From contig JAIDFQ010000043.1 in the NCBI GenBank assembly GCA_029054245.1, positions 62,001 through 126,000 of the forward strand: a stretch of DNA of 64,000 nt, given 5' to 3'. The position numbers and the translations under genes are program-made. The stretch's first letter is position 1. Every line of letters starts with the position of its first letter. Shown in pieces: positions 34,817-47,638 of this stretch. This stretch comes from Lachnospiraceae bacterium. Its GTDB lineage: Bacteria > Bacillota > Clostridia > Lachnospirales > Lachnospiraceae. Below the pieces are notes generated by a model. That model saw only the letters and a program-made list of their open reading frames with translations, was not told the origin of the DNA and searched no databases.

Positions 34817-35773
34817 ATGGATAAAAAATTAAGTTCGGGGAAGATCGTTGCTGTCGTATTTGGGAGTTTAGGCACGGTCATTGCGCTGCTAATTGTATTT
34901 ACTTTAAGCTTGTATCAGCTTGTCCAAAATCCATGGTTCTTACCAGATACAGACAACCAAGACAGAAAAGAAACGATGCAGGCATCCAGAGAGGGTGAAG
35001 GGGACGAAAAAGAAACCTATAGAGAAGATCCTGACCGTGATGAAAAGGATTCTAACAGGGAAGATGAGGATAGGACAGAGAATGAGGAAGACTTTGGCCT
35101 GTATAAAGACGGAAAGCATGATAAAGAGCAGATTGATAGCGAATATTACGATTTCCATAATGATATACAAAGAGATTTATCTTATCAGATAGAATTTAGA
35201 ACCTATCAAGAAACATACGGCGATCATAGAAATATTTCTGTGGAAATGGATTATCCAGTGGTGACAGGAAGAAGTGCAGATGATTTAGAAGGCATTAATA
35301 ATGCAATTTATAAAGAAGTGGAAGCTGTGGAGACTTATGGAAAGTCGGTGACCGACTGGCTGCCAAATGATGAAGAATTTCGCTTTGAGACAGAATGTTA
35401 TGTCACTTATATGGATGAAGACATCTTAAGTATTATATACGTGGAATATGGTTATTTAGAGGATGAAATTTATGAAAGCTACGTCATTCCCGTCAATATC
35501 GATATGGAAAGCAGGATGGCATTGACCAATTCCCAGATTCTGAATATCAATGATGCGTTTTCCATTGAATTCAGAGAAAGGTGTGAGAGACAGAACGGAG
35601 AAATACAATTCTTTTCCCTGTTTTCGGATCAGGATATCACGTACCTGCTCACAGACGAGGATAGTCTTATCATTTTTTATACTCCGCTGGGAATGGAAAT
35701 TGGTTTCAATTACTATTATGGCTGGGTAACCGTCACCTATAAGGACTATCAGAAATACCAGAATCAACTTTAG
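34817..35773 (+). CDS. Membrane-anchored protein with charged linker and DUF3298-like domain
   Basis: 318 residues. One N-terminal membrane helix (about 10-35), then an Asp/Glu/Lys/Arg-rich linker (about 50-105), then a globular region with DYPVVTGRSADDLEGINNAI and, near the end, SLIIFYTPLGMEIGFNYYYGWVTVTYKDY. The last block resembles the C-terminal DUF3298 fold of RsiV-type proteins, but no anti-sigma domain is present and the match is by eye. Probably extracytoplasmic; function unknown. GGGGGAA ribosome site. Confidence 0.6.
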   Translation: MDKKLSSGKIVAVVFGSLGTVIALLIVFTLSLYQLVQNPWFLPDTDNQDRKETMQASREGEGDEKETYREDPDRDEKDSNREDEDRTENEEDFGLYKDGKHDKEQIDSEYYDFHNDIQRDLSYQIEFRTYQETYGDHRNISVEMDYPVVTGRSADDLEGINNAIYKEVEAVETYGKSVTDWLPNDEEFRFETECYVTYMDEDILSIIYVEYGYLEDEIYESYVIPVNIDMESRMALTNSQILNINDAFSIEFRERCERQNGEIQFFSLFSDQDITYLLTDEDSLIIFYTPLGMEIGFNYYYGWVTVTYKDYQKYQNQL

Positions 35774-35810: not shown

Positions 35811-36146
35811 CCGCAAGGGCAGCGCAGCAGGTAAGATGGATCATCCGTTAACCAGAGCTGCCACAGCCTGCCGCACATATAACCGTTTCAAGGCTCTGGC
35901 GGAAAAATCAGCAATTTCACTTACAGAATGCTTCACAGCCAGAGGAAAATCGCCATGGACGGCGATTTTAGGAGCCATTAGGCAGGATGCCGCTTGGCTC
36001 CGACTCGTCCGTCTTAAAGTTTCTATGCGCATTCTGTTAGTGAAATCCGATTTTGAAGACGAGACTTGAAACGGTTATATGTGCGGCAGGCTGTGGCAGC
36101 TCTGGTTAACGGGTGATCCATCTTACCTGCTGCGCTGCCCTTGCGG
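35811..36146. repeat. Long inverted-repeat (hairpin) element, about 336 bp
   Basis: The outer arms 35811-35892 and 36065-36146 are reverse complements over 82 bases with a single difference (T35844 opposite G36113, which is a G-U pair in RNA). Further in, 35914-35931 pairs with 36029-36046 with one mismatch, and A-rich 35903-35909 can pair with 36049-36055. The apical part holds two small hairpins: 35946-35954 with 35961-35969 (9 bp), and GGAGCCA/TGGCTCC at the ends of 35971-36001. The whole can fold into one long branched hairpin. No gene-like frame with a ribosome site, no transposase and no clear flanking direct repeat are seen. It could be a MITE-like mobile element relic or a structured RNA. 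Confidence 0.85.
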
Positions 36147-36416: not shown

Positions 36417-36445
36417 TTGACAAATACGAACGTTTGTTTTATAGT
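36417..36445 (+). promoter_or_regulatory. recA promoter
   Basis: TTGACA at 36417-36422, 17-base spacer, TATAGT at 36440-36445. One LexA-box-like site sits in the spacer and a perfect one lies just downstream. Confidence 0.88.
36427..36439 (+). promoter_or_regulatory. LexA box 1 at recA (one mismatch)
   Basis: CGAACGTTTGTTT matches the Gram-positive SOS box CGAAC-N4-GTTCG except that the second half is GTTT. It lies between the -35 and -10 boxes. Confidence 0.7.
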
Positions 36446-36520: not shown

Positions 36521-37564
36521 ATGCAAAAAGAAGACAAATTAAAAGCATTGGACGCTGCGCTTGGGCAGATTGAGAAGCAGTTTGGAAAGGGTGCAGTCAT
36601 GAAATTGGGCGATTCCTCTGCGCATATGAATGTAGAAACCATTCCTACCGGCTCTTTGAGCCTTGATATTGCGCTGGGGCTCGGTGGCATTCCCAAGGGC
36701 AGGATTGTTGAGATATATGGACCGGAATCCAGTGGTAAGACCACAGTTACCCTGCACATGATTGCAGAGGTACAAAAGAGAGGCGGCATCGCAGGGTTTA
36801 TTGACGCGGAACATGCCCTCGACCCTGTTTATGCAAAGAATATTGGAGTAGATGTGGATAATCTTTACATATCCCAGCCGGATAACGGCGAGCAGGCGCT
36901 TGAAATCACGGAGACGATGGTACGTTCAGGGGCAATAGATATTGTCGTAGTTGACTCGGTTGCCGCCCTTGTCCCCAAGGCAGAAATTGATGGCGATATG
37001 GGAGACTCCCATGTGGGATTGCAGGCGAGACTGATGTCCCAGGCGCTGCGTAAACTGACGGCAGTTATCAGCAAATCAAACTGTACCGTTATATTCATCA
37101 ATCAGCTGCGTGAGAAAGTAGGGATTATGTTTGGCAATCCGGAAACGACGACAGGTGGACGTGCGCTTAAGTTTTATTCTTCCGTGAGACTGGATGTAAG
37201 AAGAATAGAGTCCCTTAAACAAAGCGGAGAAGCAATTGGAAATAGAACAAAAGTAAAAGTTGTAAAGAATAAAATCGCGCCGCCCTTTAAGGAGGCTGAA
37301 TTTGATATTATATTTGGTGAAGGCATTTCAGTAGCAGGTGATGTACTGGACTTGGCAGCAAACGTAAACATCGTAAATAAAAGCGGTGCATGGTATTCTT
37401 ATGGTGGCAATAAAATCGGTCAGGGACGGGAAAACGCCAAGCAGTATCTGAAAGACAATGCGGAAATATTTGACGAAATCTCCAGAAAGGTTCGGGAACA
37501 CTACGGATTACAGGATGCCGAGGTTTCCAAAGAAAAGACGGCTGATGACGGTAACGGGAATTAA
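36521..37564 (+). CDS. recA: Recombinase RecA
   Basis: 347 residues. Walker [10 protein letters not shown] at about 67-75, DNA-binding loop region with [28 protein letters not shown], and an acidic C-terminal tail. RecA forms filaments on single-stranded DNA for strand exchange and triggers LexA cleavage. Ribosome site AAAGGAG. The promoter carries two LexA boxes. The last 20 bases overlap recX. Confidence 0.98.
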
Positions 37565-39919: not shown

Positions 39920-39990
39920 AATAAGCTGTCACGCTTTGCGAGACAGCGTTTGATACAATAAGCTGTCTCGCAAAACGTGACAGTCATTGT
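39920..39990. repeat. Two opposed hairpin repeats of the AATAAGCTG type
   Basis: Two units lie side by side: CTGTC.CGC-TTT-GCG.GACAG and, 14 bases later, its near reverse complement (one difference in 22 bases). Each unit can fold alone, or both can pair into one 22-bp hairpin. Each is preceded by AATAAG, and the first ends CAGCGTTTGATAC, as the copy at 6768-6806 does. They sit between the rny terminator and the aminotransferase promoter. Confidence 0.6.
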
Positions 39991-40114: not shown

Positions 40115-41401
40115 ATGAAGGCATATAAGGAACTGAGTGAAAATGAATTGCTTGCGCTGAAAGAGGGTTTGAACAAGCAGTATGAGGAAGCAAAGGCAAA
40201 GGGACTGAAACTGGATATGTCCAGAGGAAAGCCTTCTCCATCCCAGCTGGATATGGAAAGAGACTTTCTGGAAGTCATCAGGTCAGACACTGATTTGAAG
40301 ACCTCATCAGGGGTTGACTGCAGAAATTACGGGCTTTTAGATGGTATACCAGAAGCGAAGAAGCTTATGGCAGATATGATAGGTGTTTCCGAGGATATGA
40401 TTATTGTTTTTGGAAATTCCAGTCTCAATATTATGTATGATACAGTTGCACGTTCCATGCTCTTCGGCGTGCTTGGGAGTACACCATGGTGCAAGCTGGA
40501 TAAGGTAAAATTCTTGTGCCCTGTACCGGGATATGACAGACACTTTGCAATCACAGAGCAGTTTGGCATTGAAATGATTAATATTCCAATGACCTGTGAC
40601 GGACCGGATATGGATCTTGTAGAAAAGTATGTAAATGAGGATCCGGCAGTGAAAGGAATCTGGTGTGTGCCTAAATATTCAAATCCCCAGGGGTATACCT
40701 ATTCAGATGAAACGGTAAAGAGGTTTGCTTCTTTAAAACCGGCTGCCGAAGATTTTAGAATTTACTGGGATAATGCATATGCCATCCACGATTTATATGA
40801 AGATAAAAGCGATCAGTTGCTCGAAATATTGAGTGAGTGTGAGAAAGTAGGAAATGCGGATATGGTTTATGAATTTGTATCCACATCCAAGGTCACGTTT
40901 CCTGGATCAGGAATTTCAGCTCTCGCGTCCTCCAAAGCAAATTTGGACTCTATTAAAAATACGATGACGATTCAGACCATTGGTCCTGATAAATTAAATC
41001 AGCTCCGTCATGTGCTTTACTTTAAAAATATTGACGGAATGAAAGCACATATGATGAAGCATGCGGCGATTATGCGTCCTAAGTTCGAGGCGATTGAAGA
41101 AGTTCTTTTAAAGGAACTTGACGGGCTTGAAATTGGCTCATGGACAAAACCTAATGGCGGTTATTTCATTTCCTTTGACGCAATGGAGGGATGTGCAAAA
41201 GAAATCGTGAATAGATGCAAGGAAGCAGGTGTCGTTCTTACAGGGGCAGGAGCAACCTATCCTTATAAGAAGGATCCCAAGGACAGCAATATCCGTATTG
41301 CACCTACCTTCCCGTCCGAGGAAGAATTATCGATTGCCACAGATTTATTTGTACTTTGCGTAAAGCTGGTCAGCGTGGAAAAACTGCTTGAGAGCAAATA
41401 A
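40115..41401 (+). CDS. PLP-dependent aminotransferase class I/II (aspartate aminotransferase-like)
   Basis: 428 residues. Fold type I: VFGNSSLNIMYDTVARSM near residue 90, KYSNPQGYTYSDE, YWDNAYAIHDL (PLP-contacting Asp and Tyr) and FVSTSKVTFPGSGISAL with the Schiff-base Lys at about 254. It matches the clostridial aspartate aminotransferase group with the start ENELLALKEGLNKQYEEAKAKGLKLDMSRGKP. Likely moves amino groups between aspartate or another amino acid and 2-oxoglutarate; exact substrate not certain. GGAGGG ribosome site. Stands in its own unit. Confidence 0.88.
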   Translation: MKAYKELSENELLALKEGLNKQYEEAKAKGLKLDMSRGKPSPSQLDMERDFLEVIRSDTDLKTSSGVDCRNYGLLDGIPEAKKLMADMIGVSEDMIIVFGNSSLNIMYDTVARSMLFGVLGSTPWCKLDKVKFLCPVPGYDRHFAITEQFGIEMINIPMTCDGPDMDLVEKYVNEDPAVKGIWCVPKYSNPQGYTYSDETVKRFASLKPAAEDFRIYWDNAYAIHDLYEDKSDQLLEILSECEKVGNADMVYEFVSTSKVTFPGSGISALASSKANLDSIKNTMTIQTIGPDKLNQLRHVLYFKNIDGMKAHMMKHAAIMRPKFEAIEEVLLKELDGLEIGSWTKPNGGYFISFDAMEGCAKEIVNRCKEAGVVLTGAGATYPYKKDPKDSNIRIAPTFPSEEELSIATDLFVLCVKLVSVEKLLESK

Positions 41402-44946: not shown

Positions 44947-44990
44947 AATTGCAAGCAACAGTTCAGCCCTAAAACTGTTACCAATTGCAA
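44947..44990. repeat. Tiny hairpin element with 8-bp flanking repeats, copy A
   Basis: AATTGCAA at 44947-44954 and 44983-44990 flank a 28-base hairpin whose arms are AACAGTT and AACTGTT with CAGCCC in the loop. The arm and loop bases AACAGTTCAGCCC also occur in copy B at 47577. AATTGCAA contains the palindrome TTGCAA, so part of the flank could simply extend the hairpin; the insertion reading leans on copy B. Confidence 0.5.
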
Positions 44991-45009
44991 TGAAAAAACT
45001 GCCGGATGC

Positions 45010-45038
45010 TTGCATTATGAGGCGAAAAAGTGTAAAAT
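45010..45038 (+). promoter_or_regulatory. hisS promoter
   Basis: TTGCAT at 45010-45015, 17-base spacer, TAAAAT at 45033-45038, about 50 bases before hisS. No T-box leader is present in the 194-base gap. Confidence 0.6.
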
Positions 45039-45090
45039 TGCAAAGTATATACATTGACGAGTAGAAGGAAAACAGATAGGAGCAAGAAAA

Positions 45091-46350
45091 ATGGCATTGA
45101 GTAAAAAGCCGGTTACCGGTATGAAAGATATCCTTCCTGAGGAGATGCAGATTCGGGATTATGTGATCAGCGTGATAAAGGAAACTTACGCATCTTTTGG
45201 GTTTACGTCTATTGAGACTCCCTGTGTGGAAAATATTGAGAATCTAAGCAATAAACAGGGCGGTGAGAATGAGAAACTGATCTTTAAGATTTTAAAAAGG
45301 GGAGAGAAGCTGAATTTAGAGACGGCGGAAAGTGAGAAGGATTTGGTGGACGGCGGACTGCGCTATGATTTAACGGTGCCTCTTGTGCGGTTTTATTCTA
45401 ATCATGCAAATGAACTGCCGAATCCATTCAAGGCGCTTCAGATGGGAAATGTATGGAGGGCTGACAGACCCCAGAGAGGACGTTACCGTCAGTTTATGCA
45501 GTGCGACATAGATATTCTAGGGGAACCTTCCAACCTTGCTGAAATAGAGTTAATATTGGCAACCACCACCACATTGGGGAAACTTGGATTTAAGAATTTT
45601 CAGATCAGGATCAATGAGAGAAGAATATTAAAGGCGATGGCGGCATACAGTGGATTTGCAGAGGAGAGTTATGACAGTGTCTTCATCACGCTTGACAAGA
45701 TGGACAAGATTGGGCTTAACGGTGTGGAAGAAGAGCTTTTAGGAAATGGATTTACAAAGGAAAGCGTGGATAAGTATCTGGCGCTGTTTAAAGGGATGGA
45801 AAGCGCCGAAGATGGGCTTGCTTTTCTTGCAAAGGAGTTAGGGGATTATCTGGAGGAAGAAGTGAAAGTCAGCCTTAAGGAGATTATGGAAAGCGTGCGT
45901 GCAACACAATGCTCTGATTTTGAACTTGTATTTGACCCTACTTTGGTACGCGGAATGTCTTATTACACAGGTACGATCTTCGAGATTGCAATGCCTGAAT
46001 TTGGTGGAAGCTGCGGCGGCGGTGGAAGATATGACAAAATGGTAGGAAAGTTTACCGGAAATGATGTGCCGGCATGCGGATTTTCCATTGGATTTGAACG
46101 AATCATCCTGCTGCTTATGGAGAGCGGTTTCAAAGTGCCTTCCCAGCCGTCTAAGGTTGCCTACCTTCTTGAAAAAGGGCTTCCTGGCGAGGAATTGTGT
46201 AAAGTGATTGCAAAGGCACAGAAGGAACGGGGCGAAGGAAGACAAGTGCTGGTGGTCAGAATGAATAAGAATAAGAAATTCCAGAAAGAACAGCTCATGA
46301 AGGAAGGCTATACAGACTTCCAGGAATTTTATAAAAATCCCCTTCGATAA
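45091..46350 (+). CDS. hisS: Histidine-tRNA ligase
   Basis: 419 residues. Class II synthetase with motif 2 region RADRPQRGRYRQFMQCDIDI, the His-binding LVRGMSYYTGTIFEI and GGGGRYDKM, motif 3 FSIGFERI, and a short anticodon-binding domain (VLVVRMNKNKKFQKEQLMKEGYTDFQEF). aspS, its usual partner, does not follow. A paralogue such as HisZ is unlikely because the His-A motif is intact. Ribosome site AGGAGC. Confidence 0.92.
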   Translation: MALSKKPVTGMKDILPEEMQIRDYVISVIKETYASFGFTSIETPCVENIENLSNKQGGENEKLIFKILKRGEKLNLETAESEKDLVDGGLRYDLTVPLVRFYSNHANELPNPFKALQMGNVWRADRPQRGRYRQFMQCDIDILGEPSNLAEIELILATTTTLGKLGFKNFQIRINERRILKAMAAYSGFAEESYDSVFITLDKMDKIGLNGVEEELLGNGFTKESVDKYLALFKGMESAEDGLAFLAKELGDYLEEEVKVSLKEIMESVRATQCSDFELVFDPTLVRGMSYYTGTIFEIAMPEFGGSCGGGGRYDKMVGKFTGNDVPACGFSIGFERIILLLMESGFKVPSQPSKVAYLLEKGLPGEELCKVIAKAQKERGEGRQVLVVRMNKNKKFQKEQLMKEGYTDFQEFYKNPLR

Positions 46351-46398
46351 TAAGATGCGGAAACGTGAAAATTTTAAAAATAATGGGTACTACTACGA

Positions 46399-46438
46399 AA
46401 AATACTACTTTTTTCTTTAAAAGTAGTATTTTCTTTTT
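46399..46438 (+). terminator. Terminator after hisS
   Basis: AAATACTACTTTT pairs with AAAAGTAGTATTT over a short loop and is followed by T-rich bases. The partial copy TACTACGAAAAA just upstream shares the stem sequence. Confidence 0.8.
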
Positions 46439-46495
46439 CACATACACCCAATAGAATGAAACCATAAAAAGATCCAAACAAAAGGAGGAATCAAT

Positions 46496-46957
46496 ATGTA
46501 TTTATTATCAATTCTCAGTGTCATATTATTGACAGCGGTTATGTGTGCTTCAACATTTGGGATGGATGGGAGCTATGTGCTCAGGCTTTTTAGCGGTAAC
46601 ACAATTCTTTTTCTCGTGCTGTTTTTGGTACCGCTGCTGATTTCCGGAGGACTGCTGAAAGATTTCAATCATGCATTTCGTCTGGTGATTGGCAAAAAAG
46701 AAGCGAAAAACCTGATGGAGCTTAAGCGCGCCAAGGAGTCAGTGAGTCTGACCATCAAAATCCTGTTGATCTTATCGGTATTCATTTGTGCCATACAGGG
46801 CGTTCTGATCATCTACAATATGGATGACCCGGCAATGCTTGGACCCTATTTTTCAGTGTCTATGCTTACTATTATTTATGGCATGGGAATCACGCTGATT
46901 CTTTTACCTCTGCAGGCAAGACTGAATATTAAAATACAGGAATATATCAACCAATGA
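46496..46957 (+). CDS. Four-helix membrane protein paired with a LuxR regulator
   Basis: 153 residues with four hydrophobic helices (about 3-22, 32-50, 80-105, 118-140). The C-terminal GPYFSVSMLTIIYGMGITLILLPLQARL block resembles the last two helices of MotA/TolQ-type proton channels, but no partner MotB-like gene is present. Strong ribosome site AAAGGAGG. Its last codons overlap the next gene (ATGA), so the two are coupled. Function unknown. Confidence 0.65.
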   Translation: MYLLSILSVILLTAVMCASTFGMDGSYVLRLFSGNTILFLVLFLVPLLISGGLLKDFNHAFRLVIGKKEAKNLMELKRAKESVSLTIKILLILSVFICAIQGVLIIYNMDDPAMLGPYFSVSMLTIIYGMGITLILLPLQARLNIKIQEYINQ

Positions 46958-47574
46958 AATTTACAATCAAAAAAATGGCGGCAATCGTGTTATACATGCT
47001 GTTTCTTGGCTTCCTGCTCAAAACAGAAGCGATACTACTTTTCAGCCCTAAGCATATCGGCATGTTTCTGGCAGGATGCTTGATCCTTTGTATTCCATAT
47101 CTTGAAAAAAAGACAAGATGGAAGGAACAAAAGGGCATATTCAAAAGAAATGCCATCACAGCAGGGTATCTAGAAACAATTATGCTGATATTTGCCACCA
47201 TGATGCAAAAAGAAATAACATGGAATACGCTTCCAGCAGAGCTGGCTCTCGATTTAAGACCAATATTTTACGGATTTGTATGTTACATTATTTTAAAAGA
47301 GGAGCCCCCAACCTTTCAAGAATCAGACCCTTTTAAAATAGAGGATCAACGAAGGGCAATTGCAGATGAAACTCCAGAAAAGGAAGAAAATAAGCCAGAG
47401 CTGGATATATCCGTACTGACCAGACAGGAAAAACAAATAGCAGCTCTTGTAAAAAAAGGTATGACAAACAGAGAAATAGGAGAAGAACTCTGCATATCAG
47501 AAGCCACCGTAAAAAAGCACATGTCCAATATCTTTGAAAAATTAAAAATCCAAAGCCGCCGGGACTTAAGATAG
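46954..47574 (+). CDS. Membrane-bound LuxR-type transcriptional regulator
   Basis: 206 residues. Four hydrophobic segments in the first ~115 residues and a C-terminal LuxR HTH (LTRQEKQIAALVKKGMTNREIGEELCISEATVKKHMSNIFEKLKI, about 152-200). It probably senses a membrane or envelope state, possibly with the upstream membrane protein, and binds DNA at the membrane. Its TAG stop lies inside the left 8-bp repeat of a small hairpin element. Confidence 0.82.
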   Translation: MKFTIKKMAAIVLYMLFLGFLLKTEAILLFSPKHIGMFLAGCLILCIPYLEKKTRWKEQKGIFKRNAITAGYLETIMLIFATMMQKEITWNTLPAELALDLRPIFYGFVCYIILKEEPPTFQESDPFKIEDQRRAIADETPEKEENKPELDISVLTRQEKQIAALVKKGMTNREIGEELCISEATVKKHMSNIFEKLKIQSRRDLR

Positions 47575-47638
47575 CGGTAACAGTTCAGCCCGCAGGGGCG
47601 ACAGAACGCCACAGCGGGCTGAACTGTTACAGATAGCG
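47569..47638. repeat. Tiny hairpin element with 8-bp target-site-like repeats, copy B
   Basis: AGATAGCG at 47569-47576 is repeated at 47631-47638. Between them lies a 54-base element with a perfect 17-bp inverted repeat: GTAACAGTTCAGCCCGC (47577-47593) and its complement (47614-47630), and an inner GGCG/CGCC. The left flanking repeat contains the TAG stop of the LuxR gene. This is the structure expected of a very small MITE-like insertion; it may also act as a terminator for the LuxR gene, since an A-rich tract follows on the plus strand. Confidence 0.75.

What the first reader, a model, noticed from the sequence alone, without database searches (positions are those of the whole stretch)
35811..36146. 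A ~336-bp near-perfect inverted repeat with a branched tip, upstream of recA
Two 82-base arms are complementary with one difference, and that difference keeps a G-U pair if transcribed. Inner arms of 18 bases pair with one mismatch, and the apex holds two further hairpins. This is much longer than any terminator, and the region lacks a transposase, protein-coding signal or clear flanking duplication. Either it is a recently formed non-autonomous mobile element, or a large structured RNA. Such long perfect arms are normally unstable, so persistence suggests youth or selection.
Basis: partly seen in the sequence, partly recalled or inferred. Interest (0 to 1): 0.72.

Follow-up and report, generated by a model that had tools for sequence, protein, structure and literature searches.

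The report
Palindromic mobile DNA filed as RNA
The long hairpin sequence before recA is one of about 45 scattered copies, in this gut bacterium, of a foldback-shaped, mobile-looking DNA element whose tip is catalogued as an RNA, and whose two arms appear to be copied from one another so that they stay matched while their sequence changes.

Summary
Observation confirmed. The apex (35897-36061) is Rfam RF01731, TwoAYGGAY RNA; the outer arms lie outside that model. This genome holds 45 RF01731 matches, G004 78, G009 7; 124 of these 130 have long near-perfect outer arms, mostly different from copy to copy.

At 14 shared loci where both species' copies have arms, 252 substitution columns changed alike in both arms against 61 that did not, and 343 gap columns against 14; two recently diverged loci show none changed alike. 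Arm mismatches do not prefer G-U over A-C (106:152), nor clearly do core stems (24:19, 14:16); RNase P gives 116:3. Matching thus seems kept by DNA copying between arms, not by RNA pairing. The core is inverted at 5 of 16 shared loci. A minority of copies have transposon-like ends with 8- or 10-bp duplications.

Best reading: an old, non-autonomous foldback element with self-homogenising arms, not a young insertion. Unexplained: neighbours within 700 bp always point apart (24 of 24). No transcription data; no mobilising transposase found.

The parts
35811..35896 (+). left outer arm of the palindrome
   Evidence: 86 nt, 98% complementary to 36061-36146; outside the Rfam model
36061..36146 (+). 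right outer arm of the palindrome
   Evidence: its outer 20 bp resemble the arm tips of several other copies
35897..36061 (+). conserved asymmetric core = Rfam RF01731 TwoAYGGAY, 77.5 bits (gathering 43); divergent 'type B' core
35914..35931 (+). inner stem, 5' side (pairs with 36029-36046)
36029..36046 (+). inner stem, 3' side
35946..35969 (+). apical hairpin 1 with loop ATGGAC (35955-35960)
35971..36001 (+). apical hairpin 2, loop contains GGAT
47577..47630 (.). core-less short hairpin with GTAACAGTTCAGCC ends, flanked by an exact 8-bp repeat AGATAGCG (47569-47576 and 47631-47638): collapsed or mini relative of the element
44955..44981 (.). probable further collapsed remnant with the same terminal sequence

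Best explanation
The feature is one copy of a dispersed, non-autonomous, foldback-shaped mobile DNA element of Lachnospiraceae. Each copy has a conserved, oriented core of about 165 bp (filed in Rfam as TwoAYGGAY RNA) and, as a rule, two long arms. SHOWN: the arms are nearly identical within a copy, differ between copies and between species at the same locus, and at most shared loci substitutions and indels appear in both arms together; mismatches show no G-U preference; mismatch density rises from the core outward; the core is found in either orientation at shared loci; some copies end in defined terminal repeats with 8- or 10-bp duplications. INFERRED: the arms are homogenised by DNA copying of one arm from the other (template switching or gene conversion at replication, starting near the core), which also flips the core; some events collapse the element to a short hairpin; spread happens in trans by transposases of insertion sequences that recognise the arm tips. 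The window copy is an old one whose tips have decayed.
For: Copy number and arms: (124 of 130). Paralogue pairs share arms plus core with sharp ends and unrelated flanks. Same-locus comparison: at 14 of 16 shared loci both copies have arms; concerted against unconcerted substitution columns 252:61, gap columns 343:14 (nine loci, five). Clearest single case, G000:C69:79158 and G004:C14:51741 (core identity 0.88, next best 0.77): 16:1 and 1:0. G-U:A-C 106:152 in arms, 24:19 and 14:16 in core stems, 13:11 in apical hairpins of three genomes and 1:2 in 11 other genomes; RNase P control 116:3 within the genus, 210:19 over 25 genomes. Mismatch and gap rate 0.011 next to the core, 0.06-0.11 beyond 70 nt. 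Arms 62% G+C, flanks 41%. Core inverted at 5 of 16 loci. End types in 15 of 123 and 6 of 123 copies, controls 0 and 0; exact duplications at G000:C37:654, G004:C5:53317 (8 bp) and G004:C6:32286 (10 bp), 3 seen against 0.08 expected at that score. Random orientation to neighbouring genes. Precedent: template switching homogenises inverted-repeat arms and inverts the spacer (PMC8604942, abstract and introduction; PMC8794818, abstract and passages).
Against: At two recently diverged loci (G004/G009) no difference is concerted (0 of 14 and 0 of 15), and 3 and 14 of those columns are the same arm mismatch kept in both species, so homogenisation is not rapid everywhere. At several shared loci the two species hold different core types or cores closer to other copies, and even where the orthologue ranks first the margin is small except at one locus; replacement by another copy is an alternative to change in place. 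102 of 123 copies show neither end type at the threshold used, which does undercount (G000:C37:654, with an exact duplication, is missed). No autonomous element with these ends was found. The core is conserved and oriented across genera, and close neighbours always point apart, which plain parasitic DNA does not predict. In other genera the arms are shorter or less perfect. No measurement of conversion or transposition.
Confidence: 0.64

Rival explanations
1. A functional structured RNA (the Rfam reading): the core is transcribed and folds, the arms extend its base helix, and both are kept by selection on RNA base pairing.
For: Matches RF01731 above its gathering score; the core is conserved and asymmetric over many genera; compensated pairs of several types; strict mutual orientation of close copies.
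Against: No G-U preference in arms, core stems or apical hairpins against 116:3 in RNase P; gaps of some 18 to 43 columns shared by both arms; strand random with respect to neighbouring genes, so not cis-regulatory; up to 78 dispersed copies.
Confidence: 0.12
2. A self-propagating element read as folded single-stranded DNA: the oriented core is recognised as a hairpin by an unknown protein, close head-to-head pairs of cores bound a moving unit with or without a gene, and snap-back synthesis remakes the arms at each round.
For: Conserved mismatches and asymmetry of the core; pairing without G-U preference; 24 of 24 neighbours within 700 bp, and 33 of 36 within 2 kb, are divergent; some pairs enclose single genes; mismatches are fewest next to the core.
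Against: No associated protein found; G000 has no Y1 transposase match; in the pairs inspected the enclosed DNA differs except for one protease gene found between pairs in three genomes; most copies are single.
Confidence: 0.15
3. Each insertion creates its arms anew as an inverted duplication of neighbouring host DNA.
For: Arms are mostly copy-specific.
Against: Paralogues share arms up to a sharp end while flanks differ; orthologous copies share flanks but not arms; arms are G+C-rich unlike flanks.
Confidence: 0.03
4. Assembly artefact: false palindromes from short-read or amplified-DNA assembly.
For: The window genome is in 80 contigs; contigs of G010 and G035 break near this spot.
Against: Same architecture in independent assemblies of several genera, with 33-nt arms in the single-contig genome G414; one locus nearly identical (99.6% over 1166 nt) in G004 and G009.
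Confidence: 0.02

Closest known systems
Rfam RF01731 TwoAYGGAY RNA (Weinberg et al. 2010, PMC2864571)
   Same: 43 of the own genome's 45 matches cover the whole model at 72-121 bits.
   Different: The model stops where the long arms begin; base-pair changes do not look RNA-driven; copies are dispersed and strand-random. Weinberg's table marks it probably RNA, probably not cis-regulatory (passage); Rfam 15 types it Cis-reg.
[quoted passage not shown] review PMC10969869, passages)
   Same: Short, non-coding, multi-copy, intergenic, inverted ends, some with target-site duplications, hairpin-forming.
   Different: Inverted repeats of about 30-200 bp, mostly copy-specific and G+C-rich (the review says MITEs are typically AT-rich); two different end types around similar cores; no parent transposon found.
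REP/REPIN doublets (PMC3116915, passages)
   Same: Palindromic extragenic repeats; inverted doublets over-represented.
   Different: REPs are 20-40 bp (abstract of PMC3733652 in the listing) and go with a tyrosine transposase; G000 has no Y1 transposase match; here each partner is itself a palindrome of some 300 bp and close doublets are head to head.
Quasipalindrome correction by template switching (PMC8604942, PMC8794818)
   Same: Arm homogenisation and spacer inversion.
   Different: Studied there in yeast genes and RNA genes; here seen on a family of long palindromes, with shared indels and a gradient from the core.
Foldback transposons of eukaryotes (recalled)
   Same: Long inverted arms that vary between copies.
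   Different: Bacterial, much shorter, conserved structured core.

Membership tests
RF01731 TwoAYGGAY | covariance-model score above the gathering threshold | tested here: met
   77.5 bits against 43
RF01731 TwoAYGGAY | is an RNA whose pairing is kept by selection (G-U tolerated, A-C not) | tested here: not met
   G-U:A-C 24:19, 14:16, 13:11, 1:2 against 116:3 for RNase P; modest samples, and the control matches lie below their Rfam cut-off
RF01731 TwoAYGGAY | transcribed | not testable with these tools
   no expression data
RF01731 as cis-regulatory element (Rfam type) | same strand as, and upstream of, the gene it controls | tested here: not met
   36 same-strand, 38 opposite-strand, 17 convergent, 28 divergent of 119; medians 29.5 bp to 3' gene ends, 113.5 bp to 5' ends (genes by ORF length)
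MITE | dispersed multi-copy, non-coding, intergenic | tested here: met
   no Pfam match in the ORF of the window copy
MITE | terminal inverted repeats of a defined sequence | tested here: inconclusive
   15 of 123 and 6 of 123 copies for two end types, controls 0 and 0; not recognised in the window copy
MITE | target-site duplication | tested here: inconclusive
   three exact cases, several with one mismatch, in copies with clear ends; none at the window copy
MITE | ends shared with an autonomous insertion sequence | tested here: inconclusive
   none seen near the IS66 transposases of G000 and G004, near 7 loci with CAATGTC ends, or as IS-sized end pairs in held loci; genomes incomplete, other IS families not searched
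REPIN | REP-associated Y1 tyrosine transposase in the genome | tested here: not met
   PF01797 absent from G000, one match each in G004 and G009
REPIN | inverted doublets as the repeated unit | tested here: inconclusive
   close neighbours always inverted but most copies are single
attC-like folded single-strand recombination site | integron integrase present and acting on it | not tested
   considered from recall only

The most novel reading that the evidence does not exclude
TwoAYGGAY cores are not an RNA but the oriented recognition ends of an undescribed class of bacterial mobile DNA that works as folded single-stranded DNA. Head-to-head pairs of cores bound a unit that can carry a gene (protease, NUDIX and acetyltransferase genes are seen between pairs), and snap-back copying remakes the long arms, which is why they stay matched while drifting.
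Probability: 0.14. Interest if true: 0.87.

Novelty: new variant of a known kind. Interest (0 to 1): 0.67.

Why it matters
An accepted structured-RNA family would turn out to be, at least here, the tip of a DNA palindrome whose 'compensatory changes' come from copying rather than selection. Covariation is a main line of evidence for new RNAs, so this is a concrete, countable warning (G-U against A-C) that can be applied to other families. It also offers over a hundred natural long palindromes in one genus as a record of arm conversion, core inversion and collapse, in hosts that carry an SbcD match, although long perfect palindromes are generally held to be unstable (PMC8604942, introduction).

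Tried and rejected
Recent insertion with an empty site: G004 and G009 lack the full element at recA, but G009 keeps a 17-bp hairpin like the arm tips and neither is a clean pre-insertion site; I treat both as later losses. A conserved spacer between paired copies: the left-left matches (output cut; filtered again) were the partner copy itself. Transposase beside the CAATGTC ends: none in the 7 loci read. The IS-sized pair of ends at window 44955-47630 encloses ordinary genes, so I read it as two collapsed remnants. REP-type Y1 transposase as driver: absent from G000. Loss of SbcCD as the reason for persistence: an SbcD match is present in G000, G004 and G009. Phage, plasmid or viral carriage: no match in phages (core) and plasmids, none for one exact 30-base pattern in viral contigs. 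Promoter or terminator in the element: scans at chance level. Pair partners as inverted duplications of one another: of 13 pairs, 4 combine the two core types, 8 are both type B, 1 is unclassed. The duplication scan also lists palindromic words inside the arms; I count only cases just outside a recognised end, picked by eye. Between-species tally: one search took 9 of 16 loci; one search added the other 5 that have arms on both sides; at 2 one copy has no arms. Alignments of 16 pairs are, one of them (G000:C36:80366) with one matching flank only and in no tally. Pair count: lists for G000, G004 and G009 are complete for that search; those for other genomes were typed from the capped listings, without the 33 weakest rows. 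Transposon family names for the ends (8-bp duplication with GTAA start as in IS66, 10-bp as in IS4/IS231) are recalled and not tested.

Full report
Observation. Window 35811-36146 is a near-perfect palindrome: arms of 86 nt, 98% complementary, 164 nt apart, with an inner 18-bp stem and two apical hairpins. It is far beyond chance (fold z = -26); among 8 inverted repeats of at least 22 nt within 600 bases in the window the next has 35-nt arms. It lies between a 318-aa ORF without a Pfam match (34817-35773) and recA (36521-37564).

What the apex is. Rfam places 35897-36061 in RF01731, TwoAYGGAY, at 77.5 bits (gathering score 43); the match ends where the outer arms begin. The papers that name TwoAYGGAY in the library searched (7 papers, 5 listed) say nothing about arms, mobility or function in what I saw: table rows of PMC2864571, passages of PMC11661157 and PMC11701678; the other two I saw only in the listing. 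Further searches for such an element listed nothing that by title and abstract describes it.

Copies. The own genome (3.85 Mb, 80 contigs) has 45 matches: 11 close to the Rfam consensus (97-121 bits; 'type A') and most of the rest a more divergent kind like the window copy ('type B', 72-92 bits). Of 60 relatives searched (G000 included), 17 have matches, all among the 36 of the same genus (strict filters). G004 has 78 and G009 has 7. In a sample of 392 genomes of the order, 34 have matches, in 20 of 174 genera, all but 4 in the same family. From contig lengths, G009 is Lachnospiraceae bacterium IMSAGC_005 and G004 the assembly MGG03587.

Arms. Of the 130 copies in G000, G004 and G009, 124 have an outer inverted repeat starting at the core: 43 of 45, 75 of 78 and 6 of 7, with median arm 93, 90 and 61.5 nt and median identity 0.967, 0.978 and 0.972. 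Of one locus from each of 11 other genomes (9 genera), 10 show an outer repeat, but as a rule shorter or less perfect (24-110 nt, 79-97%), and three of these are short and weak. Arm sequences mostly differ between copies. Where two copies in one genome share arms, the likeness runs through arms and core and stops sharply, for instance G004:C38:10255 and G004:C3:118517 (95.7% over 371 nt, unrelated outside).

Arms change together. Sixteen loci have matching flanks on both sides in two species; in four of them one or both species have a close pair of copies, so that the partner assignment rests on order. At 14 both copies have arms. In the first nine tallied, 372 columns are the same in all four arms, 184 differ between species but agree within each copy, 27 disagree within a copy; gap columns are 250 shared by both arms and 4 not; arm identity between species is 0.53-0.75 while flanks are 0.78-0.92. 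Three more give 24:3, 20:2 and 24:0. Against this, two G004/G009 loci with nearly identical flanks (in one of them on one side only) give 0:14 and 0:15, and 3 and 14 of these columns are one arm mismatch kept in both species. All 14 together: 252:61 substitution columns, 343:14 gap columns. So matching is restored over the time that separates G000 from G004, but not at once.

Same insertion or replacement? In five of the nine the orthologous core is also the closest core in the other genome: 75 concerted against 8 unconcerted substitution columns, 151 against 2 gap columns. The margin is large at only one, G000:C69:79158 and G004:C14:51741 (0.88 against 0.77), which has 16:1; in the others it is 0.02 or less, and in two a copy in the own genome is closer still. 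Two further loci carry different core types in the two species. So replacement of one copy by another surely contributes at some loci.

DNA, not RNA, pairing. If pairing were kept by selection on an RNA, single changes seen as mismatches should be G-U far more often than A-C. In outer arms they are 36:46 in G000 and 70:106 in G004 plus G009 (other mismatches 20 and 49). In type B core stems they are 24:19, in a cross-genus alignment of 31 cores 14:16 (only the outer core stem was recovered there), in the apical hairpins 13:11, and 1:2 in 11 other genomes. The same procedure as on RNase P RNA gives 116:3 within the genus and 210:19 over 25 genomes. Caveat: those RNase P matches, found in 25 of 40 genomes, lie below the cut-off of the class searched. 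Shared gaps of some 18 to 43 columns are a second argument for copying.

Polarity and composition. Mismatches and gaps rise from 0.011 per position next to the core to 0.06-0.11 beyond 70 nt; part of the outer rise may be the edge of the repeat. Of 119 copies 26 have perfect arms after trimming. Arms are 62% G+C, outward flanks 41%; read outward from the core the arm is C 39%, G 22%, T 24%, A 14%, and in 115 of 119 copies more than half pyrimidine. This fits repeated, biased copying but does not prove it.

Inversion and collapse. At 5 of the 16 shared loci the core lies in opposite orientation; of the five, one has a rank-1 core match (by 0.78 to 0.77), one a different core type. Spacer inversion goes with arm homogenisation in published template switching (PMC8604942, abstract and introduction read; PMC8794818, abstract and passages). 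At the recA locus G009 has, in place of the element, a 17-bp hairpin like the arm tips, and G004 nothing recognisable. The window itself holds two core-less hairpins with the end sequence GTAACAGTTCAGCC or a near form, at 47577-47630 (flanked by an exact 8-bp repeat) and 44955-44981.

Ends. Two kinds of outer end occur...GGCTGAACTGTTAC (15 of 123 copies within 3 mismatches, control 0) and ...CTTAACTTAATGACATTG (6 of 123, control 0) (an undercount, as the search looked only near the computed end of the repeat). Copies with the first have 8-bp duplications (exact in G000:C37:654 and G004:C5:53317, 7 of 8 in several), with the second 10-bp duplications (exact in G004:C6:32286, 9 of 10 in G004:C38:10255); at the score of an exact 8-mer 3 were seen and 0.08 expected. 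Most copies have no recognisable end, among them the window copy. No transposase with these ends was found. Trans-mobilisation by at least two kinds of insertion sequence is therefore an inference from the ends alone.

Setting. Of 119 copies with ORFs called on both sides, tandem settings are 36 same-strand and 38 opposite-strand, 17 convergent, 28 divergent; copies lie nearer to 3' ends (median 29.5 bp) than to 5' ends (113.5 bp). This speaks against cis-regulation and fits insertions tolerated behind genes.

Unexplained: head-to-head pairs. Among the lists for G000, G004 and G009, 12 of 12 neighbours within 700 bp are divergent, the 5' sides of the motifs facing each other; in partial lists of other genomes 12 of 12; within 2 kb 33 of 36, in six genera, the three exceptions being tandem. 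Between 5 and 20 kb the orientation is mixed. Some pairs are orthologous between species, so independent cases are fewer than 24. The members of the 24 pairs inspected have outer repeats of their own, and in G000 and G004 4 of 13 pairs combine the two core types. Wider pairs enclose ordinary genes: a Trypsin_2 protease in G004 and G035 and a similar ORF in G019, NUDIX proteins in G030 and G035, an acetyltransferase in G108. This shows that the core's orientation matters; nothing tested here explains it.

Verdict. The best account is an old, non-autonomous foldback element whose arms are homogenised by DNA copying, with a conserved core that has been catalogued as an RNA. It works like a MITE and like a corrected quasipalindrome; as a MITE its membership is incomplete, because defined ends were found in a minority of copies and no parent element was found. 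The RNA reading is weakened, not excluded, since transcription could not be examined.

Noticed in passing
window 47569-47638: Core-less 54-bp hairpin with GTAACAGTTCAGCC ends and an exact 8-bp flanking repeat (AGATAGCG), at the end of the 46954-47574 ORF.
   Followed up: yes
window 44955-44981: Probable collapsed remnant GCAACAGTTCAGCCCTAAAACTGTTAC in the gap between two divergent ORFs.
   Followed up: partly
window 36417-36445: recA promoter-like site (TTGACA, 17 nt, TATAGT) overlapping ACGAACGTTTGTTT, which resembles a LexA box of Firmicutes (recalled); the stretch is conserved in G004 and G009, and the element lies outside it.
   Followed up: no
window 39926-39983: A further 22-nt hairpin (95% complementary) of unrelated sequence upstream of the ORF at 40115.
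   Followed up: no
L142, L320: The pair-enclosed protease gene lies next to the RNase P RNA match in G004 and G019.
   Followed up: no
G000, G004, G009 and other genomes: RF01731 copies within 700 bp of each other are divergent in 24 of 24 cases.
   Followed up: partly
G010:C40 (L075) and G035:C26/C40 (L090, L091): Assemblies of two relatives break near the recA-upstream site; in G010 the contig begins with a core-like match, so the element is probably present there too.
   Followed up: no
outer arms, three genomes: A-C mismatches with A in the 5' arm are the commonest class (95 of 258 G-U or A-C mismatches), an asymmetry relative to core orientation that I cannot explain.
   Followed up: no
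G004:C5:41213 / G009:C77:8025 and G004:C13:19143 / G009:C79:10793: Flanks of 99-100% identity (in the second on one side only, 90% on the other) between genomes where another shared locus is 88-94% alike, which suggests recent DNA exchange.
   Followed up: no
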